A stretch of 52,234 bases of DNA from Anaeromyces robustus (lineage: Eukaryota > Neocallimastigomycota > Neocallimastigomycetes > Neocallimastigales > Neocallimastigaceae). Shown here piece after piece: positions 1-51,909 of this stretch; positions within the stretch are counted from its first letter, which is position 1; each line of letters opens with the position of its first letter. The notes under the pieces are model-generated. The model was given only the letters and a program-made list of their open reading frames with translations. It had not been told where the DNA came from and ran no database searches. The translations under genes and the position numbers were made by a program. The stretch is from positions 1-52,234 of the forward strand of contig MCFG01000439.1 of NCBI GenBank assembly GCA_002104895.1, written 5' to 3'.

Positions 1-579
1 TAGGTTATTGTAGGAAATTAATAATATATAACAATATAAAATAAGAAATTATCTAAAACACTATTGAATATTCACTTAATTAATTACAAGATTTATTTAT
101 ATACTATACATTCGTTCATTTATTTATGTTTGATATTTATATTTTATTTATTATTAATTTGATTGTTAATATCGACTCAAAGAGTCAAATAAGATAAAAT
201 ACATGAATTTATATATTCAAAAATCTATTCTGAATTATTACATGATTGGGCAATTTATTTAAAATAAGAATTATATAATTATTTAATTATTATTTTAATT
301 AAATAAATATAATATTATGAACTAGATAAATTATTATATATTATATTAATTAAGTGTATAAAGAATTAATATTTAAATAAATTTATTTCAATGAATATAT
401 ATTATTAATTTAAGTAAATTATTATTTAATAATTGAGTGAATATATTTATTATTAATTAAATAAATAATATTATTCCGAGAGATAAAGAGTAAGGTTCGA
501 ACCAGAGACAACCAACATAATAATAGAAGCAGGTAGAACTGAGCCTAATTGATAGCCATAATGAATTCATATCATTACA
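1..579 (+). mobile_element. LTR of tRNA-targeting family (fam1), left end outside the window
   Basis: Copy of the fam1 LTR. It starts about 22 bases into the family consensus, so the first bases lie off the window, and it ends with the family's terminal TTACA at 579. Sequence shared with the copies at 34704, 44729, 46258, 47230 and 48485 identifies it. It may be a solo LTR or the right LTR of a longer element; the window does not show which. Its inner end is 67 bp upstream of tRNA-Asn at 647. It differs more from the consensus than the 47230/48485 pair does, so it is older. Antisense A-box-like (536-547) and B-box-like (493-503) sequences are present. Confidence 0.85.
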
Positions 580-646: not shown

Positions 647-720
647 GCTCTTATGGCGCAATTGGCTAGCGCGTTCGGCTGTTAACCGAGAGGTTGGTGG
701 TTCAAGCCCACCTAGGAGCG
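647..720 (+). tRNA. tRNA-Asn(GTT), copy 1
   Basis: A 74-nt cloverleaf. The 7-bp acceptor pairs GCTCTTA with TAGGAGC, the discriminator is G, and the anticodon loop CTGTTAA carries anticodon GTT, which reads Asn codons AAC and AAU. The T arm has the usual GGTTCAAGCCC form. There is no intron and CCA is not encoded. A T-run directly downstream can end Pol III transcription. The 5' flank has a TATA-like AT stretch about 30-40 bp upstream, and an LTR ends 67 bp upstream. Identical to the copy at 2962. Confidence 0.97.
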
Positions 721-33818: not shown

Positions 33819-34565
33819 TTTTAATAATATGAAATTAATTATATAAAAAAGAAAAAAAAAGGGAGAAAAAAATTTTCTTTTTTTCTTTTCTTTTTTGTTT
33901 CTATTAGATTATCAGTAATTATAGAGTCAAACTTTTTTTTTTTTCCTACTTTATCATAACAAAAAAAAAAAAAAAAAAAAAAAAAATATGTTATACTATT
34001 TTTAAATTTATAATTTTAGTATTTTAAAAAATTTTTTTTATTAATTAATGGCTAATAGATTTTTATCAATATTTCTCAAAAAAATTTTTTTTCTTCATAT
34101 TCTTTTCTTTAAAAAAGTAATTTATTTATTAATATTTATTTAAAATATAAAAAATAATATATATATATTTTTTTATTCTCTTTTATCTATTTATCTTTTT
34201 TCATATATAAAAAAAATTATATAACTATTATATTTTAGTAATAATAATAATATATTTATTATTATTAATTTCTTGTTTTACACAACAACATAAAAAAATA
34301 AAATAAAATAAAATCATAAAAAAAAATTTAAAAATAAAAAAATTAAATTTTAAATATATTGTTTTTTTTTTTTTTAATAAGTATGTTTTTGAAAATAATA
34401 ATAAATATATAAATATATATAGATATCTATTTATATATATTCTTTTATCTTTTATTATTCTTTTTTATTTTGTTTTTAATACAAAAAAAATAATTTATAT
34501 AAAATGATTTTAATAAAAAAAAAAAAACATTTTTTTGAAAGATAAAAAAAATGAAAAAATTTAAG
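33819..34565. other. Intergenic region, DBP9 to tRNA-Arg cluster
   Basis: No gene seen. AT-rich with A- and T-runs. The last 40 bp form the T-rich (minus-strand) 3' flank of the first tRNA-Arg gene, where Pol III is expected to stop. Confidence 0.6.
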
Positions 34566-34639
34566 CACTCACGGCGGGACTTGAACCCGCAATCTTCAGA
34601 TTAGAAGTCTGACGCCCTATCCGATTAGGCTACGCGAGC
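34566..34639 (-). tRNA. tRNA-Arg(TCT), copy a
   Basis: A 74-nt cloverleaf. Acceptor GCTCGCG pairs with CGTGAGT, including G-U at the first and fifth pairs; the discriminator is G. The anticodon stem TCAGA/TCTGA closes loop CTTCTAA with anticodon TCT, which reads AGA and, by wobble, AGG. T arm GCGGG-TTCAAGT-CCCGC. No intron. AGA is the main Arg codon in AT-rich genes, which fits the amplification. TATA-like TATATTT lies 32-38 bp upstream, and the LTR at 34704 lies 64 bp upstream. Confidence 0.97.
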
Positions 34640-34703
34640 TTCTATTAAACATAAAAATTTTTAAAATCTTTATATTTAAGTATAATTCAATTCATATGAT
34701 TTT

Positions 34704-35308
34704 TGTAAAGATTTGGAGTGACCACTAGGTTATTGTAGGAAATTAATAATAAATAATAATATAATATATTAAATTATTTATAACACTATTGATTATTCAC
34801 TTAATTAATTAGTAGATTCATTTATATAATATATATTTGTTCATTTATTTATGGTTGATAAATAAATAAAATATAAAATTTTATTTATTATTAATTGATT
34901 GTTAATATCGACTCAAAGAGTCAAATAAAATAAAATACATGAATTTATATATTCAAAAATCTATTCTAAATTATTACATGATTGGGCAAATTATTTAAAA
35001 TAAGAATTATATAATTATTTAATTATTATTTTAATTAAATAAATATAATATTAAGAACTAGATAAATTATTATATTAATTAAGTGAATAATAAATTAATA
35101 TTTAAATAAATTTATTTCAATGAATACATATTATTAATTTAAGTAAATTATTATCTAATAATTGAGTGAATATATTTATTATTAATTAAATAAATAATAT
35201 TATTCCGAAAGGTAAAGAGTAAGGTTCGAACCAGAGACAACCAACATAATAATAGAAGCAGGTAGAACTGAGCCTAATTAGTAGCCATAATGGATCCATA
35301 TCATTACA
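34704..35308 (+). mobile_element. fam1 solo LTR with 5-bp target duplication
   Basis: A 605-bp LTR beginning TGTAAAG and ending ATTACA (TG...CA), flanked by the direct repeat ATTTT at 34699-34703 and 35309-35313. No internal region or second LTR is attached, so it is a solo LTR left by recombination. Close to the 47230/48485 LTRs, apart from a small AT-rich length difference, so fairly young. The target duplication lies at -60 to -64 of tRNA-Arg copy a. The matching unoccupied flank is upstream of copy b (about 35764-35827). Confidence 0.9.
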
Positions 35309-35827
35309 ATTTTTTTTTTTGAATAATCATATATAAAAATAATATTTTTTTTAAAAAAGAAAGAAAAAAAGAAAAAACTTAATATTATAATTATTTATTT
35401 TGGTATTATTATTATTATTATTATTATTATTTATTTTTTTATATTTATTTTTGTTTGAAAAAAATTTTAATTATAATAATATTCATAATCATGTTGTTTA
35501 AGATATTAATTAGAATATTTATTTGAATTAATATATTTATTAACAATTTTTTAAAACATAATTTGAATTATACCATTAATAATAAAAAAAAATATAAAAA
35601 ATAAAAAGATATGAATTGAATAATATTTAAAATATATATATATATTCATTATTATTAAAATTTATTATATAGGATATTAATTAGAATATTTAATATAAAG
35701 TTATATATTTATTTAATAACTTTTTAAAATTTATTTTGAATATACAATTAATAAAAAAAAAAAAAAAATCATATGAATTGAATTATACTCAAATATAAAG
35801 ATTTTAAAATTCTTTCACCTAACAGAA
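35309..35827. other. Spacer between LTR and tRNA-Arg copy b
   Basis: No gene seen. AT-rich with a TTA array at about 35405-35432. The last 60 bp match the 5' flank of copy a in inverted orientation, including TATA-like AAATATAAAG at 35791-35800. Confidence 0.6.
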
Positions 35828-35901
35828 GCTCGCGTAGCCTAATCGGATAGGGCGTCAGACTTCTAATCTGAAGATTGCGGGTTCAAGTCCCGCCGTGAGT
35901 G
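35828..35901 (+). tRNA. tRNA-Arg(TCT), copy b
   Basis: Identical 74-nt body to copy a. Head to head with copy a across the LTR, and tail to tail with copy c. T-runs begin 7-10 bp downstream. No element is inserted at -60, so its flank shows the uninterrupted state of the site used at copy a. Confidence 0.97.
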
Positions 35902-36567
35902 CTTAAATTTTTATTTTTTTATTTTTTTAATATATATAAATTGATATATATATTTTTTTTTTAGTTTTTATTTCTTTTTAATTTTTATTTATATATTTAT
36001 ATATTATCAAATAAATGATATATATATTATCTTATTTTATTCATAGGTATATATATATATTCTTTAAAAATTTTTATATCTCTTCTAATTAACAAAATTA
36101 ATCCAATTCAATATATATTCATTATGTTAAATGTCTTAATATAAAAAAAAAAAAAAATTAAAGAAAAAATATTTTTGTTTTTATTTTTTATGTATATTAC
36201 GAAAATTTATCATTAAAATTGATAATTAAAACAAAAATATTATTATATTCAACTTAAATAAATTTTTTTATGTCAATATTATATATAATGATTTATATTT
36301 ATGTGAATATATATAATATAAAAAAAAATAAAAAAAAAAAAAAAAAAATAAAAGTATTAATTTTTATTAATTAAATCAAAAAATTCTACCTTTTCTTCTT
36401 TTATTTTTTTATTTATAGTATAAAAAATAATTGAGAAAAATTATTATTATAAAATGAAAATATATTTATAAAAATTGAAAAAGAAAAAAAAATATCTATA
36501 TATATATATACATATATAGATTAAAATATTAACAATTTTAAATAAAAAAAAAATGAAAAAATTTAAG

Positions 36568-36641
36568 CACTCACGGCGGGACTTGAACCCGCAATCTTCA
36601 GATTAGAAGTCTGACGCCCTATCCGATTAGGCTACGCGAGC
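36568..36641 (-). tRNA. tRNA-Arg(TCT), copy c
   Basis: Identical 74-nt body. Convergent with copy b; the 35902-36567 space between them is AT-rich and gene-free, and its two ends are inverted relatives (tRNA 3' flanks). Its 5' flank lacks the stretch with the usual TATA-like element that copies a, b, d, e and f share. The sequence joins after about 10 bp to a part found about 200 bp upstream of copy f, as if deleted. Confidence 0.96.
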
Positions 36642-36654
36642 TTTCGTTGAATTT

Positions 36655-37620
36655 ATGATAAATAATGAAATTTTTATAGTACTTTTAATTATAATATTAA
36701 CTTTTAAAAATTCTAATTAGTTTTATTTATTATTATTCTCTATAATTTATTATTAATTTACTTTAATTATAATTATTTTCTAAACTTCAAATAATTAATA
36801 AATTTTAATATTATATTGAATTATCATTTAAAATAATTAATAACATTAATAAAAAAATAATAAGATTATTAAATTATATTTTAAAACAATATCTTTATCA
36901 TTATTATCTTAAACTAAATCAATTCTTAAAAATATTATTGAATATTAAATTTATATAAATTATAAACAATTTATAATTAATGTTATAAAAATAATAAACG
37001 ATTCTAAAATATTTTAATTAAATAATATGACTCGAAAATAGTTTCTAAAAACACTTTTAAAATACCTTCTAAATACTTTTTAAATATTCTTTACACTTAA
37101 ACATTTCTAAATTAGAAATAACAACTAATTTTATTTACTTTATAAATAAATAAACAGTTTATCTTTATAATTTTATTAATAATATTATTTATTTTTATTA
37201 TTTATTTTATTAATATTTTTATACATTTTTACTTATTTTATTCAATAATTTTTAATTATTTTATTTATATTTTTATAAATACTTGTATTATTTTATTTAT
37301 TATTGTAAATAGTTTAATTTTAAAGAAAAATATAAATACATGTAAATATTTTTATGTAAATTAATTCTTTACTACTATTTTTAATAATAGCTTAGTCATA
37401 AATATAATAAATTAATAATTATTAGAATAAATTACTAAATTAAAATATATAATCAACATAAAATAGTTTAGTTAAGAATAAAACTACTATTTAATAAATA
37501 ATAATAAATTTAATAAAATTTTAATAAATAAATTTTATATTTTAAACTTAATAATAAAACTGTGTTTTTATAAAACAATTTTAGTGTTTAAATTTACAAT
37601 CTACTGGAAAATAACTTAGA
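36655..37620 (-). repeat. Long tRNA-Arg 5' flank repeat (copy upstream of c)
   Basis: Diverged homologue of about 41940-42720 (upstream of copy f) in the same orientation and of about 50850-51500 (upstream of the pseudogene) in inverted orientation. Shared landmarks include TAAATTATAAACAATTTATA, GTTTCTAAAAACACTTTTAA and the ATAAAATAGTTTAGTTAAG region. It contains no open frame of note. It shows that the amplified unit can include about 1 kb upstream of the tRNA. Confidence 0.65.
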
Positions 37621-37708
37621 CAGTTATTCTGAAAATACATAGGTAATATCACTTTCTTCCCTATAAAGAATTAAGATATTACCATTTTGTATTATTTAGT
37701 TTTTTTAA

Positions 37709-37845
37709 AACCCTTATATTTGGAGTTAATTCAATTTCTAATTTTTAAAATCTTTTGTTAAAGAATTTTTAAAATTTTATATATATATACAAAGAGTTTT
37801 GAATCTTTTATATTTGAATATAACTCAATTCAATAATTTTTAAAC
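37709..37845 (-). repeat. Orphan tRNA-Arg 5' flank without a tRNA
   Basis: Two successive copies of the flank type seen upstream of copies d and f (AAAACCCTTATATTTGGAG, then TTTTATATTTGAATATAACT), but no tRNA body is attached. Likely a remnant of a lost or partially copied unit. Confidence 0.55.
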
Positions 37846-38694
37846 CGTACAAAAATATAATATTATAATATTTTATAAATATATACTACCAATGAAGTTA
37901 TTAGTATCTTAGAATTTATTAATTATATTAATAATGAAATAAAAAATGTTCATTACCTCTTTTTTCTGATTGAATGATAATTCTGTTTCTTTTGATTACT
38001 ACGAGAATATATATACTTTTTTTACCTTAATTTCAATATTTGTTAATTATTATATATGTGATTATGATGATATTTACCATTATATATAAAATATTCTATG
38101 ATATAATTATAATTAATGAAAATACAAAAATAAAATGAATAATTATCTATAATACCCCAATACTATTGTAAATTAGACTATCAATATCATTTATAATATA
38201 AAATTAGAATTTGAAAAATCATATGAAAAAAATCCAGTTAAACTTATATATATATTCTTTTCTTTTTAAATTTTTATTCATTAAATCTTTTTTTTTTTTT
38301 ATTTTTTTTTATTTTTTATTTCTTTATTTCTTTATTTCTTTATTTTTTTATTTTTTTATTATTTTATATTTTTTAAATTTTATTCATTAAATCTTCTTTT
38401 TTTTTATTTCATTTTTTTTTTTTCATTTTTATTATTAACCTTTTTATTTTTTTTTTCTTTATTTCTTTATTTCTTTATTTCTTTATTTTTTTATTTTTTT
38501 ATATTTTTTATATTTTTATTATAAATATTTTTTTTCTATTATTTTATTTTAATTTTTTTAAAAAAGTATTTTATTTACATTGTATTAAATCATTATAATG
38601 TAAGAGTTACAATTAATGATATAAATAAATAATTTTTTTTATCATAAAAATAATAGTTTATAAAACAAATTAAATACTGCTATAATTTTTTGTT

Positions 38695-38696
38695 GC

Positions 38697-38763
<67 letters not shown>

Positions 38764-38797
38764 GTTATTGTTATTATTATTATTATTATTATTACTA
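38695..38797. repeat. TTA trinucleotide array
   Basis: About 100 bp of TTA/ATT repeats with a few G and C interruptions (TTATTG, TTACTA). Confidence 0.9.
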
Positions 38798-39182
38798 TTA
38801 CTATTTTCTTTTATAAGTTAACTATGATAAATTTATTAAATTATAATATTATATATCACAAATTGGAAAATATAGAATTCAATGATACCAACAAGGAAGA
38901 TAAAGAAAATAAATAAAAATAATAAATTCAGTAATAATGTCATTGAAGAATAAGAAAAAAAAAGGAAAATAAAAAAAATGAAATAAAAAAATACAAGAAA
39001 TCTATAAATGAAAAATGTTATTTTAAATAACACACTCTTAGAGAAAAAAGTTCAAATAAAGAAGAAATCTATAAAAATGCTAAATAATGGAATATAATTA
39101 GATAAAGTGAAAGTATTTGAAATTCTATCTGAAAATTCAACAAATATTATTTATAGCTTTATATATAATGAAATAATAAATA

Positions 39183-39221
39183 AAAGTATTAGTATATTAG
39201 CCACTAATATACTAATACTTT
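39183..39221. repeat. Perfect 18-bp inverted repeat with 3-nt loop
   Basis: AAAGTATTAGTATATTAG is followed by CCA and its exact reverse complement. It would form a stable hairpin in RNA or a cruciform in DNA. Nothing gene-like adjoins it. Function unknown. Confidence 0.85.
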
Positions 39222-39724
39222 ATGATTATTATTTGTCATTAATAATTATTTTTTTTTTTTTATAAAAAAAATTATTTTTATTTTATTTTCTTATTTTATA
39301 TTTATATATATTAAATAATGAAAAAGCATTTATTAATGATTTTTTCTTTTTATTTATTTATTCTTTTATTCTAATAACTCTTTTTAAATTATATTTATAA
39401 ATAACATTAATTTTTTAAATATATTTTTATATAATTTACATAAATATTTCTTTTATCAATATATTCACTATATAGAAGAAAAAAAATTTTTTTAATATAT
39501 ATAATAAATAAATTGAATATTAAAAAAAAAAAAAAAAAACTAATATTTTTTATTTTTTCAATTATCAATGAACTATTTTTTGAATTTGAAAAAAAAATAT
39601 ATAAAGTTTATATGTATATTTAAAGAAATAATGAAGTAAAAAATAAATAATTAATTAATTAATTAAATGGTTTAATGAATAATAAAAGTTTAAAAAAAAA
39701 AATATATAAAAATAAAAAATTAAG

Positions 39725-39798
39725 CACTCACGGCGGGACTTGAACCCGCAATCTTCAGATTAGAAGTCTGACGCCCTATCCGATTAGGCTACGCGAGC
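39725..39798 (-). tRNA. tRNA-Arg(TCT), copy d
   Basis: Identical 74-nt body. It forms the left outer end of a large palindrome with copy e. The 5' flank carries TTTATGTTTGG in place of the TATATTT of other copies at about -32. Confidence 0.97.
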
Positions 39799-40252
39799 TT
39801 CCGTTGATTTAAAAATTTTTAAAACCTTTATGTTTGGTTATAATTCAATTGCTAATTTTCAAAACCTTTACATTTGATTATAATACAAATTATATTTTAA
39901 TTAATAATATAAAATATTTAATTAATAAGTATTAATAAAAATTTTATGTCAATATTATATTATATATATATGTATAATACTAAAAATGAAAAAATGAATA
40001 AATTAAAAATATTTTTGAGGAAAAAAAACATTTTTGTATATAACAGATTTTTTTATTAAATTGATAATAAAAATGAGAATATTGTTATATTTAATAATGA
40101 ATATATATATATATTGAATTAGTTTAGTTGAATCAGAAGAATTATATAAATAATTTAAAAAAATAATATTTATAAAAAAAATAAAAATAAATTAATCTAC
40201 ATTAAATAATTATATTATAATCTATATATTTAAAATTTTTCAAGGTCTAATG

Positions 40253-40685
40253 TCTCTCAAATTAGTGGCATTACCTTATCTTATTTTCAAATTTTTTAAA
40301 ACCTTTATATTCAAGTATAATTCAATTCATAAAAATCATATTATATGTCGAATATTAATGGATTTAAAGCTGAAATTCTCTAATAAATGAATTGAAATTA
40401 AATTTCATTATTAACAAAATCATTTAAAATAAATTCAATTTTTATCAAAAAAATGAATATTAAAGATTATCTAAATTATAAAATTAATAGTTTTGGACCA
40501 TTAAAATATCAATTTAATTTAATCCTTAATAAATTAATAAAACAAATGAAAGGAAATAACGAGAACTCTTCAAATATTGAATTGAAGATTTCCCCCATTT
40601 CCTTCTGATGTTATCTCATCGAGAAACTATGCTCAATAGCTACATTATATTTTAATTTCAGCTCATATGGATCATTAATTTGCTA
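40253..40685. other. Single-copy centre of the tRNA palindrome
   Basis: Less AT-rich than the surroundings, with CCCCCATTTCCTTCTG and CTCATCGAGAAACTATGC stretches. It includes a tRNA-Arg flank fragment (about 40297-40330) and a 51-codon open frame from an ATG at 40453 to a stop at 40606-40608 with mixed residue use. I recognise no family. It could be a captured exon or simply spacer. Confidence 0.4.
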
Positions 40686-41115
40686 AACATTAGACCTTGA
40701 AAAATTTTAAATATATAAATTATAATATAATTATTTAATATAGATATAATTCATTTTTATCTTTTTATAAATATTATTTGTTTTAAATTATTTATATAAT
40801 TCTTCTAATTCAACTAAACTCATTCAATATTCTCATTTTTATTATCAATTTAATAAAAAATTTGTTATATATAAAAAAGTCTTTTTCTTCAAAAATATTT
40901 TTAATTTATTCATTTTTTTTATTTTTAGCATTATATATATATATATAATATAATATTGACATAAAATTTTTATTAATATGTATTAATTAAATATTGTATA
41001 TTGTTAATTAAAATATAAATATAATTTTTATTATAATCAAATGTAATGGTTTTAAAAATTAGCAATTGAATTATAATCAAATATAAAGGTTTTAAAAATT
41101 TTCAAATTAATAAAA

Positions 41116-41189
41116 GCTCGCGTAGCCTAATCGGATAGGGCGTCAGACTTCTAATCTGAAGATTGCGGGTTCAAGTCCCGCCGTGAGTG
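41116..41189 (+). tRNA. tRNA-Arg(TCT), copy e
   Basis: Identical 74-nt body, the right outer end of the palindrome. TATA-like ATATAAAGG lies at about -28 to -36. Tail to tail with copy f. The space 41190-41673 is AT-rich, gene-free and contains a run of about 38 A at 41371-41408. Confidence 0.97.
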
Positions 41190-41362
41190 CTTGCAAATTT
41201 TTCAATATTTGTTTATGCATTTTTTTTTTTATAAAATAAATTTCAATAAAAACTTTTAATTATTATATATAATATAATTTCATTATTTATAATATTTTTT
41301 ATTATTATTTTCTTTAATATTTTATTTTAATTATTTATGGTTTTTTTTTTAAATTTTAAAAT

Positions 41363-41424
<62 letters not shown>

Positions 41425-41673
41425 TATAAAATACAATATATACTAATAATCATTATATAATTATTATATAAACTGATAGTAAAAAATGAAATTTTTTTAA
41501 GTTTGATTGTATAAATAAAGAAAAATTTTTACCTCAAATATAATATTTTTAACATAGTTTATATAAATATCATTATATATTTAAAAAAATAGAGAAGTAA
41601 AGAAATAAAAAAAAAAAATTTTTTTGAATAAAAATTTAAAAAAAAAAAAATTCAATATAAAATAAAAATTAAG

Positions 41674-41747
41674 CACTCACGGCGGGACTTGAACCCGCAA
41701 TCTTCAGATTAGAAGTCTGACGCCCTATCCGATTAGGCTACGCGAGC
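41674..41747 (-). tRNA. tRNA-Arg(TCT), copy f
   Basis: Identical 74-nt body. The flank has TTTATATTTGGG at about -30 to -38, then a second, related flank segment at about 41810-41870. This double flank resembles the orphan at 37709-37845. Confidence 0.97.
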
Positions 41748-43891
41748 TTCTGTTGATTTCAAAATTTTTAAAACCTTTATATTTGGGTATAATTCAATTG
41801 CTAATTTTTAAAAGCTTTTGTTAAAGAAAGAATTTTTAAAATTTTTATATATGAGTATAATTCAATTCATAATTTTTATTTATTGAGAAAATAAACGGAT
41901 TTAAAGATATTTTTATAATATAAATTCTTTTGAGCTCATAATAAATAATAAAAATTTATATTACTTTTAAATATAATAACTTCTAAAATTTATTATTAAT
42001 TACTTTAATTTTTATTATGTACTAAACTTCAAATAAATGATTAATAAAATTTAATTTATATCAAATTATTGTTTTAATAATTAATAATATTAAATGAAAA
42101 TAATAGATAGATTATAACTTATACTTTTAAATAATATTTTTATTATTAATCATAAATATTAAATATAAAATTTATGTAAATTATAAACAGTTTATAAATT
42201 AATATTATAAAACAATTCAAAAGTATTTTAATTAAATAATTTGACGTAAAAACAAAAAATTTCTAAAATACTTTTAAAATAATTTTTAAAATAATTTCTA
42301 ATTACTTTTTAATTATTATTTACACTTAATAATATTAATTGGTATTTCCAATTTAGAATTATTTTATAATTTTTATTTTTATTACTATTATTATTTAATT
42401 TTATTATTTATATTGCTATTTTTATACATTTTTAAGTATTCTATTTAGTAATTTTTATTCATTTTTGTATTATAAATTATTGTATTGTTTTTTTATTATT
42501 ATAAATAGTTTAATTTTACAGAAAAACATAAATATTTTTTAAATATTTTCATGTAATTATTTCTTCTTTATAAATGTAATAATAATTAGATTAGTTAAAT
42601 GAATAATAATAATTAAAATAGTTTAATTTATGATTAATAATTTTGTATTTAAAAATAAAAATAATAAATAAAAAAAATTTAAAAAAAATTCCTTTTATTT
42701 TTTAAACATTGATTTTCAAGAAAAATTATTGTTCTTTAAATTATTGCCTAAAAAATGAAAGGAGTAAAAGTTTATAATACAAAATTTACTCCTTTTAAAT
42801 AGAAAATATATATATTATTTTTAATTATTATTGTTTATTTATTATTTTTTCACATTTATTTTTAAATTAGTTAAAAAATTAAAATAATAATCATATACGT
42901 TGATGTTTTTAATATTTATTATTATATTAAAAAATATTCTTTATTCTATTATATGATTTGATATATTATAAAAATTATAAATTTTTTATTCGTTATATTC
43001 TTTATTTTCAATTTTAAACATTATATCTTTCTTTATAAGTTAAATTAAAATATATGAAGAAACATTACTGTAGGAATTAATAATACTTTTATATTTTTTT
43101 AATTAAAAAAATTTTTATTTTATTAAGTTTATTTTTTTTATAATATATAATACTAAGAATGACAATTAGTACTATAAATTTCAATTATACCATATAAACC
43201 ATAAATACTATCATAATCATAATTTTAGTATAAGGATTACTATAATATAGAACACCAACTGATTTATACAGGTATTATTTTTATTATATATTAAAGTAGA
43301 ATCATATTTTGTAGCAATTATAAATTTAAGTGATTTTCTACATAAAAGCTTTTTATATCTATGACTATTATAACGAATTAAATAAATTATACCAGATCTT
43401 TGATAAGTTTCAGTTTAAGTAATAAATTTGAGAGTATAATTGATATTCTTTTCACAATTAATAAATGTAATCCTATTTCAAACCATTATAATCAGGTTCA
43501 AAATAATTAATATTAAATGTGTATTTATATTTGATTATTATCATATTATACGTAAATATTTTTTTAGTTTATTGAATTATTTATAAAAACAAAATATATT
43601 ATTATTATAAAAAATAGAAATTTCTTTTATTAATTAAATAATAAATAATCTAATATTAAATATAAATATAAATTTTGTAAGTAAAAAAAAATTTGAATAA
43701 AGTTCACTAATGTTACTTCAATATTTATTTACTTATTAACTATAAAATATGGTAAAAAATATTAAAAAATTTTTATATTCATAAAATATTAATATTTTTA
43801 ATGAAGTAAAATAAATAAATAAAATAAATAAAAAAAAAATTATGAATAAAAATTTAAAAAAAAAATTTAATAAAGGAAAAATAAAAATAAA
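41748..43891. other. Flank repeat and AT-rich spacer between tRNA-Arg copies f and g
   Basis: About 41940-42720 is the homologue of 36655-37620. A short inverted repeat (AAAGGAGTAAA / TTTACTCCTTT) lies at about 42758-42799. The part 43050-43860 is less repetitive but has no open frame that I can support. Confidence 0.55.
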
Positions 43892-43965
43892 CACTCACGG
43901 CGGGACTTGAACCCGCAATCTTCAGATTAGAAGTCTGACGCCCTATCCGATTAGGCTACGCGAGC
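43892..43965 (-). tRNA. tRNA-Arg(TCT), copy g
   Basis: Identical 74-nt body. First of four same-strand copies (g, h, i, j) in a tandem array of units about 450-510 bp long once insertions are removed. Two LTR insertions of different families lie just beyond -60 of this gene. Confidence 0.97.
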
Positions 43966-44030
43966 TTCTATTGAAATTAAATTTTTTTAAACATTTATAT
44001 TTAAGTAGTGGACGAAATTAAATTTTTAAT

Positions 44031-44724
44031 TGTTAGGTTTCCAACTGGATTATTTTCTAATTTAAATAAGTCTACTAGGTCGAATGACTAATTATATAGT
44101 TTTTATAATTAAATAGTTTTTATAATTAAATAATATTTAAATAATAACTAAATTAATTGTAATGCAAATAACACAATATTTATTTAATAATAATAATAAC
44201 ACTTTAAGATTAACTTTTTAATAGTAAATTTTATTTAAAAATAAGATATTGATAATATTAATATAACTATATAATTCAGGTGTTAATAACCTTACAAAGA
44301 ACATTAAATATAACTTTATGTTATGTTCTTTTATACTTTGTAAGTTTGATAATAATAATATAAAATATAATATAAAATATTAATACATTAATTTAATACA
44401 TTAATTTAAAGTGATACGTTAACGTATAATATAATTAATAATTTGTAATATAATAAGTTATTAATATCGATATTAAATAGTAATAAAATTAATATATTAT
44501 TCAATATAATTGAATATATATAAATAATATATATATTAAAATATATTATTAGATTATTTAAATAATCTTAAATTATAATATTTAAAATAAAATATTATAA
44601 TAATAATTATTATATATAATTATTATAAAAAATTATTAATAATTATTATAATAAATAATAATATTATATATCAAAATAATTGAAATTATAAATTCTAATT
44701 TCAATTGCACTTGATGTCTTGACA
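44031..44724. mobile_element. Second-family (fam2) solo LTR, nested at the edge of a fam1 LTR
   Basis: A 694-bp segment running TGTTAGG...TTGACA (TG...CA), flanked by the direct repeat TTAAT at 44026-44030 and 44725-44729. The right repeat overlaps the first base of the fam1 LTR, so fam2 inserted at the junction of that LTR with the tRNA flank, after it. There is no second LTR or internal region. Its sequence is unlike fam1. The target lies at -61 to -65 of tRNA-Arg copy g. Single copy in the window, so family boundaries rest on the termini and duplication only. Confidence 0.75.
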
Positions 44725-44728
44725 TTAA

Positions 44729-45305
44729 TGTAATGATATGGATCCATTATGGTTACCAATTAGGCTCAGTTTTGCCTGATTCTATTATTATATTGGTAGT
44801 CTCAGGTTCGAACCTTATTCTCTACCTCTTGGAATAATTTTATTTATTTAATTAATTATAAATACATTCATACAATTAATAAATAATAATTTACTTAAAT
44901 TAATAATATATATTTATTAAAATAAATTTATTTAAATATTAATTCTTTATTCACTTAATAAATATAATAATTTTTCTAGTTCATAATATTATATTTATTT
45001 AATTAAAATTATAATTAAATAATTATATAATTCTTATTTTAAATAATTTGCACAATCATGTAATAATTTAGAATAGATTTTTAAATACATAAATTCATGT
45101 ATTTTACTTTATTTGACTCTTTGAGTCGATATTAACAATCAAATTAATAATAAATAAAATCTAAATATCAACAATAATTAAATGAACGAATATATATTAT
45201 ATAAATAAAAAGTGAATATTCAATAGTGTTCAAAATAATTTCTTATTTTATGTTATTATTTATTATTAATTTCCTACAATAAAGTGGTCAATACAAATCT
45301 TTACA
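44729..45305 (-). mobile_element. fam1 solo LTR, old copy
   Basis: A 577-bp minus-strand copy of the fam1 LTR, the most diverged in the window, hence the oldest. The direct repeat TTTAA lies at 45306-45310 on the right. The left copy is at 44025-44029, now separated by the later fam2 insertion. Taking fam2 away puts this LTR's target at -60 to -64 of tRNA-Arg copy g. The antisense A-box-like and B-box-like sequences persist in this old copy. Confidence 0.85.
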
Positions 45306-45619
45306 TTTAAATTATTTCATTTTTTCACTTAATATAAAAAATGCTTAAAAAATAAATTTATTTTACTAAAATCAAAATTTATTTTTTTTTTTTTACATAT
45401 TTTATATTCAAAAAAATTTTAAAAATATAATTGATTAAAATATTAATTCACTATGGAAGTTTGGTTGAATTGAATTTTTTGTTAATATTATATTTAATTT
45501 TATTAATTATCAAGTAATAAATATTAATATAATGTATTTAAATATAAAAATAAATATAAAAATTAATGTTAATAATAAATATCTTTATATTTTAAATAAA
45601 AAAAAAGTGAAAAAATAAA

Positions 45620-45693
45620 CACTCACGGCGGGACTTGAACCCACAATCTTCAGATTAGAAGTCTGACGCCCTATCCGATTAGGCTACGCGAGC
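45620..45693 (-). tRNA. tRNA-Arg(TCT), copy h, variant
   Basis: The 74-nt body has one difference from the other copies: the T stem has GTGGG instead of GCGGG, giving a U-G pair opposite CCCGC. This still folds. The first flanking base upstream also differs. Probably functional. Confidence 0.93.
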
Positions 45694-46119
45694 CTCTGTT
45701 AAATGCAAAATTTTTTAAACATTTATATTTAAGTAGAGGACGAAATTAAATTTTTAAAATTATTTCATTTTTTCACTTAATATAAAAAATACTTAAAAAT
45801 AAATTTTTTTTTCTAAAATCAATAAAATAAATTATTTTTACTAAAATCAATATTTATTTTTTTTTTACTTATTTTAAATTCAAAAATTTTTTTCAAAAAT
45901 GTGATTAATTAAAATATTAATTCACTATAATGGAAGTTTGGTTTAATTTTTTGTAAATATTATATTTAATTTTATTAATTATCAAGTATTAAATATTAAT
46001 ATAATGTATTTAAATATAAAAATAAATATAAAAATTAATGTTAATAATAAATATCTTTTTTTATGATAATAAATATCTTTATTTATATTTTATAAAAAAA
46101 AAAATAATGAAAAATAAAG

Positions 46120-46193
46120 CACTCACGGCGGGACTTGAACCCGCAATCTTCAGATTAGAAGTCTGACGCCCTATCCGATTAGGCTACGCGAGC
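46120..46193 (-). tRNA. tRNA-Arg(TCT), copy i
   Basis: Identical 74-nt body. TATA-like TTTATATTTAA lies at -29 to -39. The snap-back LTR element begins 64 bp upstream. Confidence 0.97.
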
Positions 46194-46257
46194 TTCTGTT
46201 GAACATGAAATTTTTTAAACATTTATATTTAAGTAGAGGACGAAATTAAATTTTTAA

Positions 46258-46709
46258 TGTAAAGATTTGGTGTTACCACTAGGTTATTGTAGGAAATTAA
46301 TAATAAATAATAATATAATATATTAAATTATTTAAATCACTATCGAATATTCACTTAATTAATTATTTATATAATATATATTTATTCATTTATTTATGGT
46401 TGATATTTATATTTTATTTATTATTAATTGATTGTTAATATCGACTCAAAGAGTCAAATAAAATAAAATACATGAATTTATATATTCAAAAATCTATTCT
46501 AAATTATTACATGATTGGGCAAATTATTTAAAATAAGAATTATATAATTATTTAATTATTATTTTAAATAAATAAATATAATATTAAGAATTAGATAAAT
46601 TATTATATTAATTAAGTGAATAATAAATTAATATTTAAATAAATTTATTTCAATGAATACATATTATTAATTTCCTACAATAACCTAGTGGTCACTCCAA
46701 ATCTTTACA
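46258..46709 (+). mobile_element. Snap-back fam1 LTR derivative with inverted ends
   Basis: A 452-bp element. About 416 bases of the fam1 LTR from its TGTAAAG end run forward, then switch within a shared ATTATTAATTT to the reverse complement of the same TGTAAAG end. Both termini are therefore the same LTR end, an inverted repeat of about 50 bp. It is flanked by a perfect direct repeat TTTAA (46253-46257 and 46710-46714), at -60 to -64 of tRNA-Arg copy i. The strand given is that of the long part. Confidence 0.85.
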
Positions 46710-47089
46710 TTTAAATTATTTCATTTTTAAACATTTATATTTAAATAGTGGACAAAATTGAATTTTTCAAATTATTTCATTTTTTTTACTTAAATATAAA
46801 TGCTTAAAAAAAAAGTTTTTTCCCTAAAATTCAAATTCTTTTTTTTTTTTTTTTACTTATTTTATATTTAACAAAATTTTAAAAATGTGATTGATTAAAA
46901 TATTAATTCACTATAATATAAGTTTGGGTGAATTTTTTTTAATATTATATTTAATTTTATTAATTGTCAAATAATAAATATTAATTATCAAATAATAAAT
47001 ATTAATATTAATAATAAATATCTTTATTTATAATAATAAATATCTTTATATTTTAAAAAAATAAAAAAAAATAAAAATAAAAATTTAAA

Positions 47090-47163
47090 CACTCACGGCG
47101 GGACTTGAACCCGCAATCTTCAGATTAGAAGTCTGACGCCCTATCCGATTAGGCTACGCGAGC
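47090..47163 (-). tRNA. tRNA-Arg(TCT), copy j
   Basis: Identical 74-nt body, but its 5' flank (47164 onward) is of the tRNA-Asn type, homologous to 1138-2487, not of the Arg type seen at g to i. TATA-like TATATA lies at -30 to -35. A complete two-LTR element starts 66 bp upstream. Confidence 0.97.
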
Positions 47164-47229
47164 TTCTGCTGAATGCTGATACAATATTCCCTTATATACA
47201 CATTATTTCTAAACCCATATTTTTAAACC

Positions 47230-47822
47230 TGTAATGATATGGATCCATTATGGCTACTAATTAGGCTCAGTTCTACCTGCTTCTATTATTATGTTGGTTG
47301 TCTCTGGTTCGAACCTTACTCTTTACCTTTCGGAATAATATTATTTATTTAATTAATAATAAATATATTCACTCAATTATTAGATAATAATTTACTTAAA
47401 TTAATAATATGTATTCATTGAAATAAATTTATTTAAATATTAATTTATTATTCACTTAATTAATATAATAATTTATCTAGTTCTTAATATTATATTTATT
47501 TAATTAAAATAATAATTAAATAATTATATAATTCTTATTTTAAATAATTTGCCCAATCATGTAATAATTTAGAATAGATTTTTGAATATATAAATTCATG
47601 TATTTTATTTTATTTGACTCTTTGAGTCGATATTAACAATCAATTAATAATAAATAAAATATAAATATCAACCATAAATAAATGAACAAATATATATTAT
47701 ATAAATGAATCTACTAATTAATTAAGTGAATAATCAATAGTGTTATAAATAATTTAATATATTATATTATTATTTATTATTAATTTCCTACAATAACCTA
47801 GTGGTCACTCCAAATCTTTACA
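47230..47822 (-). repeat. 3' LTR of the short fam1 element
   Basis: On the minus strand it starts TGTAAAG and ends ATTACA. A-box-like TAGGCTCAGTTC (47262-47273) and B-box-like GGTTCGAACC (47306-47315) lie on the plus strand, that is antisense to the element, 44 nt apart as in a tRNA gene. Confidence 0.93.
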
Positions 47823-48484
47823 ATATCGACTCCACGTTGAAACAACACCCACTACCTTGTTGTAGGACCAATCCTTCCAAGGTTTTCACCGTTCAACGTT
47901 TCAATAAACGCCATAAATCGAAAATCTATTTTCAATAATATTAAAATAAGAACAACAATGCATCCATCAATCTTTTTCGGAAATTTTTTAATTTTACCAA
48001 TCGGTTTAAAAAATGATGCGTTTTTCACTAAATATAAATTATCTCCATCAGGAGTACACTTTGAACTAGTTTGGAACATTCTAGAACAGTTTTACCTATT
48101 TTTCTTCTCAAAAAATCTTTATTTCAATTTTGATGCCGTTAGCCGCATTTTTTGGTAATTTTCTGTTCATACTCAATTCTACTAGAAAACCAGATACCAA
48201 TTTATCTTTATTTTATCTGTGCCTGCCATATAATACCTCTTAAACTCTACTTCGATATAAAATTTTAACTACTATTTTAGGATACGTTACCGCTAAATAA
48301 TCAAATACTATAACTCTAATATTTTAATATATCTTTTTGTAGATACTATCTTATACAAATTTTTTTTTTTTAGGCTTTTAATGATTACTCTCGATTATAA
48401 CTCTCTTTAGATTATCTACAAACTCTTATTTACTATTCTTTTATATTAGCGATCGTCTGGTATCCGATCTTTAGAGGAGGACCA
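47823..48484 (-). other. Internal region of the short fam1 element
   Basis: A 662-bp segment, less AT-rich than the LTRs. It includes a GATCG/CGATC hairpin close to the candidate primer-binding site. A 75-codon open frame (47852-48079, minus) has no family I recognise. I cannot point to a clear polypurine tract. Confidence 0.75.
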
Positions 48485-49077
48485 TGTAATGATATGGATC
48501 CATTATGGCTACTAATTAGGCTCAGTTCTACCTGCTTCTATTATTATGTTGGTTGTCTCTGGTTCGAACCTTACTCTTTACCTTTCGGAATAATATTATT
48601 TATTTAATTAATAATAAATATATTCACTCAATTATTAGATAATAATTTACTTAAATTAATAATATGTATTCATTGAAATAAATTTATTTAAATATTAATT
48701 TATTATTCACTTAATTAATATAATAATTTATCTAGTTCTTAATATTATATTTATTTAATTAAAATAATAATTAAATAATTATATAATTCTTATTTTAAAT
48801 AATTTGCCCAATCATGTAATAATTTAGAATAGATTTTTGAATATATAAATTCATGTATTTTATTTTATTTGACTCTTTGAGTCGATATTAACAATCAATT
48901 AATAATAAATAAAATATAAATATCAACCATAAATAAATGAACAAATATATATTATATAAATGAATCTACTAATTAATTAAGTGAATAATCAATAGTGTTA
49001 TAAATAATTTAATATATTATATTATTATTTATTATTAATTTCCTACAATAACCTAGTGGTCACTCCAAATCTTTACA
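48485..49077 (-). repeat. 5' LTR of the short fam1 element
   Basis: 593 bp, identical to the other LTR by eye. A-box-like at 48517-48528 and B-box-like at 48561-48570 on the plus strand, again 44 nt apart. Confidence 0.93.
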
Positions 49078-49082
49078 AAACC

Positions 49083-51848: not shown

Positions 51849-51909
51849 GCTCGCGTAGCCTAATCGGATAGGGCGTCAGATATTGCGGGTTCAAGTCCCG
51901 CCGTGAGTG
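51849..51909 (+). pseudogene. tRNA-Arg(TCT) pseudogene lacking the anticodon arm
   Basis: 61 nt: acceptor, D arm, T arm and discriminator are unchanged from the intact copies, but 13 bases are missing. These are the anticodon loop with the TCT anticodon and the 3' half of the anticodon stem. The 5' flank keeps its TATA-like element and both internal promoter boxes survive, so it might still be transcribed, but it cannot decode. It is the only damaged body among eleven Arg copies. Confidence 0.93.

What the first reader, a model, noticed from the sequence alone, without database searches (positions are those of the whole stretch)
34566..49082. LTR elements integrate at one fixed distance (-60 to -67) upstream of tRNA genes
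Seen: six insertions, each with its 5-bp target site measured from the mature tRNA 5' end. 34699-34703: -60/-64 (Arg a). 44025-44029: -60/-64 (Arg g, fam1). 44026-44030: -61/-65 (Arg g, fam2). 46253-46257: -60/-64 (Arg i). 47225-47229: -62/-66 (Arg j). 580-584: -63/-67 (Asn 1, only one side visible). Targets differ in sequence (ATTTT, TTTAA, TTAAT, AAACC, A-run), tRNA species differ, and both orientations occur, so the common factor is distance, not sequence. Known: yeast Ty3 integrates a few bases from Pol III starts, and Dictyostelium TRE5 elements about 50 bp upstream of tRNA genes. A tight window near -62 for an LTR element in a gut-fungus-like genome is, as far as I know, undescribed. Inference: the integrase is guided by TFIIIB or TFIIIC on the promoter.
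Basis: partly seen in the sequence, partly recalled or inferred. Interest (0 to 1): 0.95.

Follow-up and report, generated by a model that had tools for sequence, protein, structure and literature searches.

The report
Retrotransposons landing 62 bp before tRNAs
In what is very probably an anaerobic gut fungus, short retrotransposons insert about 62 bases in front of tRNA genes, and at the same spacing in front of tRNA-like start signals carried by other retrotransposons, so some mobile elements bring along landing sites for others.

Summary
All six target positions check out. I compiled 75 insertions of the 593-bp-LTR element ("fam1") by hand from the 70-Mb assembly. In 20, a tRNA gene starts 64-68 bp from the LTR edge (12 anticodons; orientation 10:9). 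In 16 more, a tRNA-like A/B-box unit at the start of another LTR stands at that distance; in 3, a SINE-like repeat has its B box at the same offset. The other 36 show nothing of the kind (two after un-nesting do). For the 69 insertions that could be permuted within their loci, 33 hits face a mean of 0.09.

The window's full copy has a perfect empty site elsewhere (466/466). Class II tRNAs keep the spacing although their B box moves, so the anchor is on the start/A-box side.

fam1 is non-autonomous. The autonomous Ty3/gypsy family fam2 uses the same spacing and is the likeliest integrase donor. A further family, fam4, ends 14-17 nt from the same starts.

New variant of Pol III-targeted Ty3/gypsy integration: I found no LTR element with this spacing, nor LTR-borne promoters reported as targets. 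Tether and donor are inferred.

The parts
34565..34639 (-). tRNA-Arg(TCT) gene a, target of the fam1 copy at 34704
34704..35308 (-). fam1 solo LTR (605 bp; sense is -, since the TGTAATG end is on the right); TSD ATTTT 34699-34703 and 35309-35313; d = 65
43892..43965 (-). tRNA-Arg(TCT) gene g, target of an older fam1 copy and of fam2
44031..44724 (-). fam2 solo LTR (694 bp, sense TGTCAA..CCTAACA on the - strand); TSD TTAAT 44026-44030 and 44725-44729; d = 66; the LTR of an autonomous Ty3/gypsy family
44729..45305 (+). older fam1 solo LTR, 89% identical to the young copies; TSD TTTAA 44025-44029 and 45306-45310; d = 65 before fam2 entered
46119..46193 (-). tRNA-Arg(TCT) gene i
46258..46709 (.). 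fold-back fam1 LTR, TGTAAAG terminus at both ends; TSD TTTAA 46253-46257 and 46710-46714; d = 65
47090..47163 (-). tRNA-Arg(TCT) gene j
47177..47183 (-). tRNA-side terminus of a fam4 element (TGTATCA read towards the gene), 14 nt from the tRNA start; fam1 is inserted inside this fam4 end
47230..49077 (+). full-length fam1: 5' LTR 47230-47822, interior 47823-48484, 3' LTR 48485-49077 (LTRs identical); TSD AAACC 47225-47229 and 49078-49082; d = 67; empty site on contig C219
47263..47273 (+). degenerate A-box-like stretch of the fam1 LTR (AGGCTCAGTTC)
   Evidence: by alignment with the X2 unit by eye
47306..47315 (+). B box of the fam1 LTR (GGTTCGAACC)
48459..48484 (+). end of the interior with polypurine tract (GGTATCCGATCTTTAGAGGAGGACCA), shared in part with autonomous X1 and, more distantly, fam2
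1..579 (-). diverged fam1 LTR cut by the contig start; target side 580-584
   Evidence: d = 68
647..720 (+). tRNA-Asn(GTT) gene 1, target of the copy at 1-579

Best explanation
fam1 is a short non-autonomous Ty3/gypsy-type LTR element (593-bp LTRs, 662-bp interior, 5-bp target duplications) in a probable anaerobic gut fungus. Its cDNA is inserted by an integrase tethered to the transcription complex assembled on type 2 (A box/B box) Pol III promoters, so the strand transfer falls about 59-67 bp upstream of the mature RNA start whatever the local sequence. Shown: the fixed spacing from tRNA genes, from A/B-box units at the start of other LTRs and, by B-box offset, from a SINE-like repeat; a perfect empty site; both orientations; several LTR families at the same spot. 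Inferred: the tether is TFIIIB or the TFIIIB-TFIIIC assembly, because the spacing follows the start/A-box side and not the B box; and the enzyme comes from the autonomous family fam2 or a close relative, which uses the same spacing and whose integrase resembles that of Ty3 (about even odds for this last step). LTRs of X1 and X2 carry tRNA-like promoter units, so those elements are themselves targets and create new sites where they insert.
For: 20 of 75 insertions at d = 64-68 from tRNA genes of 12 anticodons and 16 of 75 at the same distance from LTR-borne A/B units; the B-box motif GGWTCRANNC falls at offset 115-119 in 33 of 39 outward occurrences within 400 bp of 126 edges, 3 more at 126-127 in class II tRNA-Ser genes; permutation mean 0.092, maximum 2, against 33 for 69 permutable insertions; perfect empty site 466/466; 43 of 51 two-edged copies have exact 5-bp duplications; orientation 10:9 at tRNA genes; class II genes keep d = 64-68; fam2 edge to TGTAACGR gap of 37-39 in 7 of 8 genome-wide pattern matches with 22-52 allowed; fam2 integrase: Ty3 is the best match among solved structures.
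Against: 36 of 75 insertions show no Pol III unit in the DNA held (34 after un-nesting two), some of them inside Ty3/gypsy coding sequence. No insertion of the families looked for was seen 36-40 bp in front of fam1's own degenerate unit, apart from X starts, whose order of insertion is ambiguous. The donor integrase is not shown: fam1's PPT region resembles X1 more than fam2, and X1's own edges are not at this spacing. Pol III occupancy of the LTR units is untested. One genome only.
Confidence: 0.87

Rival explanations
1. Insertion is untargeted; copies elsewhere were lost by selection or ectopic recombination, and those in a tolerated slot upstream of tRNA genes survive.
For: 36 of 75 copies lie elsewhere, including inside other retroelements.
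Against: A 5-bp-wide slot is too narrow for tolerance: the neighbouring positions should be equally safe. The copies are young (51 of 59 full-length LTRs at least 99% identical to the window's). The same slot is used in front of LTR-borne units, where no host gene needs sparing.
Confidence: 0.04
2. The integrase recognises a DNA sequence or structure at about -62, such as a conserved upstream element, not the Pol III complex.
For: Several targets share the same upstream DNA, because fam4 ends lie there.
Against: 24 distinct duplications among 28 intact ones; in front of LTR-borne units the target lies in unrelated flanking DNA; near-identical spacers account for 13 of the pairs among 40 edges.
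Confidence: 0.04
3. The tRNA units were duplicated together with one inserted LTR.
For: tRNA-Arg genes are in arrays, contigs C219 and C378 are near copies over the stretch compared, and the C397 pair and perhaps C445/C459 are single events.
Against: Different duplications, orientations and tRNA species; perfect empty site.
Confidence: 0.02
4. Targeting is real, but the donor integrase is that of the chromodomain element X1 and not fam2.
For: fam1 and X1 share CGTCTGGTATCCGA and GGAGGACCA next to the 3' LTR, and similar termini TGTAA..TTACA.
Against: X1/X2 5' edges: 0 of 28 near a Pol III unit, though 4 abut their own PPT and 14 have fam1 in front, leaving 10 informative; 0 of 7 outer X1 3' ends. 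fam2 edges do stand at the spacing, and fam2 has a related CGTCTGGAATCCGA stretch.
Confidence: 0.25

Closest known systems
Ty3 (S. cerevisiae) and Ty3/gypsy kin Tj1, Ylt1, Tyl3, Tyl6, Beta/Tca8
   Same: Ty3/gypsy LTR elements inserted at a narrow fixed distance upstream of Pol III genes; Ty3 integrase is the best solved match of the fam2 integrase
   Different: They insert 1-10 bp from the start site or 6-30 bp from the mature sequence (PMC5911963 Table 1, section 11 read; PMC4600332 passages); here about 59-67 bp. fam4, not fam1, occupies a Ty3-like slot
DGLT-A and Skipper-2 (Dictyostelium)
   Same: LTR elements at tRNA genes in an AT-rich genome; Skipper-2 has a diverged chromodomain (PMC5006619 passages; PMC5911963 section 12)
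   Different: DGLT-A 13-33 bp upstream; [quoted passage not shown]
TRE5 (Dictyostelium) and NLTR-B (Polysphondylium)
   Same: Fixed window upstream of tRNA genes, 40-54 and 39-64 bp: the closest distances on record that I found (PMC5911963 Table 1)
   Different: Non-LTR elements; TRE5 in one orientation. fam1 has LTRs, 5-bp duplications and both orientations
Helenus / TRIMp3
   Same: Non-autonomous LTR elements with a tRNA-like Pol III promoter in the LTR; fungal members have 5-bp duplications (PMC10886601, passages)
   Different: Reported fungi there are Pucciniales and three Agaricomycetes, with Copia as likely helper; 'upstream of tRNA' does not occur in that text. Here such a unit also starts the LTR of an autonomous Ty3/gypsy element and stands at the insertion spacing
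Cassandra
   Same: Short non-autonomous LTR element with a Pol III promoter in the LTR (listing and abstracts only)
   Different: 5S rRNA-derived, in plants; targeting to Pol III promoters not mentioned in the abstracts shown

Membership tests
Pol III-targeted Ty3/gypsy elements (Ty3-like behaviour) | Insertions concentrated at a fixed distance upstream of Pol III genes | tested here: met
   20 of 75 at tRNA genes, 36 of 75 with LTR-borne units, 39 of 75 with the SINE-like repeat
Pol III-targeted Ty3/gypsy elements (Ty3-like behaviour) | Slot at or next to the transcription start | tested here: not met
   d = 64-68 for fam1; only fam4 ends at 14-17 nt
Pol III-targeted Ty3/gypsy elements (Ty3-like behaviour) | Own integrase of Ty3/gypsy type | tested here: not met
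   fam1's 662-bp interior has no room for pol; the co-targeting family fam2 has H2C2, rve and SH3 domains
Pol III-targeted Ty3/gypsy elements (Ty3-like behaviour) | Integrase binds TFIIIB | not testable with these tools
   needs biochemistry
Helenus / TRIMp3 | tRNA-like A and B boxes in the LTR | tested here: inconclusive
   fam1: perfect B box, degenerate A box; X1 and X2: both boxes
Helenus / TRIMp3 | Non-autonomous, two LTRs, PPT, 5-bp duplications (fungi) | tested here: met
Helenus / TRIMp3 | Recognisable primer-binding site | tested here: inconclusive
   the interior starts ATATCGACTCCACG; no primer tRNA was identified and no systematic search was made
TRIM in the strict, small sense | Very short element (hundreds of bp; limit recalled) | tested here: not met
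   1848 bp with 593-bp LTRs
TRE5-like tRNA-targeted elements | Non-LTR element, single orientation | tested here: not met
   LTRs and 5-bp duplications; orientation 10:9 at tRNA genes

The most novel reading that the evidence does not exclude
The tRNA-like A/B-box units at the start of X1/X2 LTRs are mobile landing pads: they recruit the Pol III initiation complex and thereby direct the insertion of other LTR families, so the supply of targets multiplies with the elements and is not limited by the number of host tRNA genes. Because a run of four or more T follows the B box within 4-25 nt in all 32 LTR units held, they are unlikely to drive full-length element RNA, which leaves a targeting, boundary or small-RNA role. 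With fam4 at about -15 and fam1, fam2 and fam5 at about -62, the Pol III initiation complex would be a two-slot docking platform shared by competing families.
Probability: 0.35. Interest if true: 0.9.

Novelty: new variant of a known kind. Interest (0 to 1): 0.77.

Why it matters
It adds a precise new distance to a short list of Pol III-linked LTR insertion sites, in an early-diverging fungal lineage for which my searches found no report. It offers natural experiments (class II tRNA genes, LTR-borne promoter units, two slots at about -15 and -62) that separate the start side from the B box as anchor. If LTR-borne units act as landing sites, elements enlarge each other's safe haven, which would help explain nested clusters and would give a reason other than transcription for keeping tRNA-like promoters in LTRs. 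The related integrases of fam2 (no recognisable chromodomain) and X1 (with one), 41% identical over 417 residues, make the targeting determinant testable by domain exchange.

Tried and rejected
Rfam searches at gathering threshold for other Pol III RNAs beside the unexplained copies gave only tRNAs; the SINE-like repeat has no Rfam match up to E 5. X1 as a self-targeting element: not seen (informative cases are few, see rivals). The search for an autonomous partner through a supposed primer-binding site rested on a wrong reading: the X1 3' end shows that stretch to be the PPT, so fam1's sense was reversed from then on, and the labels 5' and 3' in earlier outputs and are in the old sense. C181, looked at because an integrase hit lies nearby, showed no coding frame of 100 aa on that strand in the part held. 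Two LTR-unit distances other than 65-68 were seen, 113 and 144: they are the far sides of two insertions already counted (C295, C219:51515). The control regions at other places asked for were never obtained; the null uses the same loci and leaves out 6 of 75 entries whose held pieces are under 500 bases (C382, C397, C445 twice, C533, C596). As an outside bound, even 2506 first-look tRNA candidates in 70.17 Mb (only 63 were scored) would give about 0.01 expected hits for 150 edges by my arithmetic. One search's output was cut; the unexplained flanks were printed again. The hand-compiled list of 75 contains one-edge and contig-end copies, two fold-backs and two compound arrays. The structure of the fam2 integrase C terminus was not predicted. 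Abstracts and titles only were seen for most papers listed; five papers were opened (PMC5911963 outline and sections 11 and 12; PMC4600332, PMC5006619, PMC10886601 and PMC8632968 as passages).
Full report
WHAT WAS CHECKED. The window is the whole contig C378 of an unnamed 70.17-Mb, 769-contig assembly. It holds 10 tRNA-Arg(TCT) and 3 tRNA-Asn(GTT) genes. The host is very probably an anaerobic gut fungus: the dockerin family CBM_10 has 683 first-look candidates, 150 of them scored and listed, and none in the 14 control genomes; 24 of 26 2-kb windows of the contig have 8-17% GC. That this family marks Neocallimastigomycota is recalled, not tested.

THE ELEMENT. The LTR is 593 bp (605 bp in the copy at 34704-35308). 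Genome-wide, a 26-base piece of one LTR end matches 78 times and a 23-base piece of the other 88 times, both at up to two mismatches. The 662-bp interior of the window copy has 28 matches, of which 18 cover it from end to end at 99-100%. That length leaves no room for pol, so the element is non-autonomous. Of 59 full-length LTRs in the DNA held, 35 (the query included) are identical to the window's and 51 are at least 99% identical; the two most diverged are 88% and 89%, and both of these (C271:42522, d = 67; window 44729, d = 65, read from the sequence) stand at the spacing, so the habit is long-standing.

THE SPACING. I compiled 75 insertions by hand and fetched flanks for them. d is the distance from the outermost LTR base to the first base of the mature tRNA; the 5-bp duplication lies just inside it. 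Twenty of 75 have a tRNA gene pointing away from the element at d = 64-68, mean 66.6, with 12 different anticodons for 10 amino acids. Sixteen more (17 edges) stand at the same distance from the start-equivalent of an A box/B box unit that is not a tRNA gene. Of the 39 unclassified, three have a B-box-like GGATCGACACC at offset 115, 117 and 118, the offset found for ordinary tRNA genes; it belongs to a repeat with 183 first-look candidates and 40 scored copies and no Rfam match. Un-nesting adds window 44729 and C219:65322 (corrected d = 66); C219:30990 looks alike but its duplication is unclear. The other copies include one-edge and contig-end pieces, copies abutting other LTR families, and, by eye, copies within Ty3/gypsy coding sequence (C571, C19).

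STATISTICS. In 126 outer edges, 400 bp each, the motif GGWTCRANNC occurs 39 times in the outward direction: 33 at offset 115-119, 3 at 126-127 and 3 elsewhere; on the other strand it occurs 3 times. Placing insertions at random within their own held loci gives a mean of 0.092 hits at 64-68 and a maximum of 2 in 2000 runs, against 33 observed, for the 69 of 75 entries that could be permuted; over all 75 the observed figure is 37 edges or 36 insertions. This null keeps the local richness in tRNA genes.

INDEPENDENCE. 43 of 51 two-edged insertions have exact 5-bp duplications; 28 tRNA- or LTR-unit-targeted ones with an intact duplication show 24 distinct ones. Among 40 target edges, 13 pairs have near-identical spacers. 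Most lie where fam1 entered copies of the same fam4 end; their members differ in the position of the duplication, in orientation or in the flank sequence, except C445/C459, which share position and orientation and may go back to one event although the units behind them differ. The C397 pair is a mirror duplicate and counts as one entry. Orientation at tRNA genes is 10:9 plus one fold-back, at LTR units 7:8 plus two undefined, at the SINE-like repeat 0:3. The window's full-length copy has identical LTRs, and contig C219 carries the same flanks without it, 466 of 466 bases identical with a single AAACC. That is direct evidence of a recent insertion 67 bp upstream of a tRNA gene.

WHERE THE ANCHOR IS. 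In three class II tRNA-Ser genes the B box lies at offset 126-127, yet d is 67-68; for one tRNA-Leu gene d is 64. The spacing therefore follows the start/A-box side. This fits TFIIIB and argues against the B box alone; it does not separate TFIIIB from the A-box half of TFIIIC or from Pol III.

THE LTR-BORNE TARGETS. The non-tRNA units lie 35 bp inside LTRs that start TGTAACG. A 21-base piece of the X1 unit occurs 350 times genome-wide at up to two mismatches (reversed control 2); only the first 100 places are listed. Six of those 100 lie 1.16-1.23 kb downstream, on the same strand, of an integrase hit (C134, C193, C214, C219, C249, C295; compared by eye, and one search scored 150 of 235 candidates), and five of the six have a second copy 6.55-6.83 kb upstream. 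The 3' part of the C219 one encodes an integrase end with H2C2, rve, SH3 and chromodomain, then a PPT and the LTR. So X1 is an autonomous Ty3/gypsy element whose LTR starts with a tRNA-like unit in the sense direction. X2 is a second short family, with fam1's PPT and no frame of 120 aa in the 9.9 kb around one copy. fam1's own LTR starts with a degenerate A box and a perfect B box. In all 32 LTR units held, a run of at least four T follows the B box within 4-25 nt; in fam1 the first comes after 222 nt. In so AT-rich a genome that is no sign of selection, but it makes full-length Pol III transcripts unlikely. X1/X2 edges themselves are not near Pol III units: 0 of 28 5' edges, of which 4 abut their own PPT and 14 have fam1 in front, leaving 10 informative, and 0 of 7 outer 3' ends.

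WHO INSERTS IT. Other LTR families share the slot: fam2 at 66 and 68, fam5 at 64, 66, 67 and 72, fam7 at 69. fam2, the second family at the window's Arg-g gene, is autonomous: LTR pairs 6.34-6.35 kb apart in five cases (C88, C179, C209, C554, C633) and integrase hits about 1.38 kb before the 3' LTR in five (C88, C209, C303, C367, C554), compared by eye, which list 41 full-length LTR copies of 2420 candidates. Of the three other fam2 loci returned by rank, two (C179, C747) have an A/B unit at the spacing and one (C633) does not. A search not chosen by Pol III genes, fam2 edge then 22-52 bases then TGTAACGR, gives 8 places; the gap is 37 (4), 39 (3) or 45 (1), i.e. d = 66, 68 or 74; two of the 39s share one spacer. 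The fam2 integrase end is 41% identical to X1's over 417 residues, up to the SH3 domain; it has no Chromo match up to E 10, and Ty3 is its best solved relative. By eye its C terminus could be a decayed chromodomain. Ty3 integrase uses a vestigial chromodomain to bind TFIIIB (PMC8632968, passages), and Skipper-2, with a diverged chromodomain, targets tRNA genes while Skipper-1 does not (PMC5006619, passages). I therefore favour fam2 as donor, at about even odds; fam1's PPT region resembles X1 more closely.

A SECOND SLOT. fam4, with termini TGATACA..TGTATCA and 521-522 bp long in two cases, ends 14-17 nt from the start of 9 of 52 tRNA genes and 4 of 32 LTR units held; TGTATCA was seen at no other distance within 150 bp. 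This is close to the Ty3 and DGLT-A position.

WHAT IS KNOWN. Table 1 of PMC5911963 (sections 11 and 12 read) lists LTR elements at 1-33 bp, or within about 1 kb for Ty1, Ty2 and Ty4, upstream of Pol III genes, and non-LTR TRE5 and NLTR-B at 39-64 bp; no LTR element at about 60-67. Helenus (PMC10886601, passages) carries tRNA-like sequences in LTRs of rusts and three Agaricomycetes; 'upstream of tRNA' does not occur in it. Searches on gut-fungal retrotransposons gave nothing relevant in the titles and abstracts shown; searches on LTR-borne Pol III promoters, chromoviruses at tRNA genes and non-autonomous LTR elements at tRNA genes gave nothing closer than the papers named. Subscription papers are mostly missing and the library holds no bioRxiv set, so absence from print is not established.

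VERDICT. Observation confirmed and extended. Targeted integration is well supported; the tether and the donor integrase are inferred; the landing-pad reading is open.

Noticed in passing
window 46258-46709; C213:75493-75709; C242 and C166 (about 195-bp palindromic LTR): Fold-back LTRs: the same terminus at both ends. The first two have a 5-bp duplication on each side, as if integrated as such; their origin (self-primed cDNA?) is unexplained.
   Followed up: partly
51 two-edged fam1 copies, 59 full-length LTRs: Most fam1 insertions are solo LTRs although 35 of 59 LTRs are identical to the window's: either very fast LTR-LTR recombination or direct integration of single LTRs.
   Followed up: no
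window 47177 outward; C219:30990 and C219:65322: fam4, an element with TGATACA..TGTATCA termini ending 14-17 nt from Pol III starts; one case shows a 4-bp duplication. Its coding partner was not sought.
   Followed up: partly
C158:92123-92349, C260:54339, C445:244999: A dispersed SINE-like repeat starting near GTCGACCAGTTTCTATCCTGG with a B-box-like GGATCGACACC; 183 first-look candidates, no Rfam match.
   Followed up: partly
C505:20706-25054: Tandem array of fam1 sharing LTRs (four LTRs, three interiors) within one 5-bp duplication.
   Followed up: no
window 51849-51909: tRNA-Arg pseudogene lacking its middle part, scored as tRNA by Rfam (43 bits) and not called by ARAGORN.
   Followed up: no
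contigs C219 and C378: Near copies of one tRNA-Arg array differing by LTR insertions, probably haplotypes: a ready set of empty and filled sites; only one site was compared.
   Followed up: partly
window about 47792-47880: Across the 5' LTR/interior junction of fam1, CCTACAATAACCTAGTGG is nearly complementary to CCACTACCTTGTTGTAGG (by eye), like a stem around a primer-binding site; no primer tRNA recognised.
   Followed up: no
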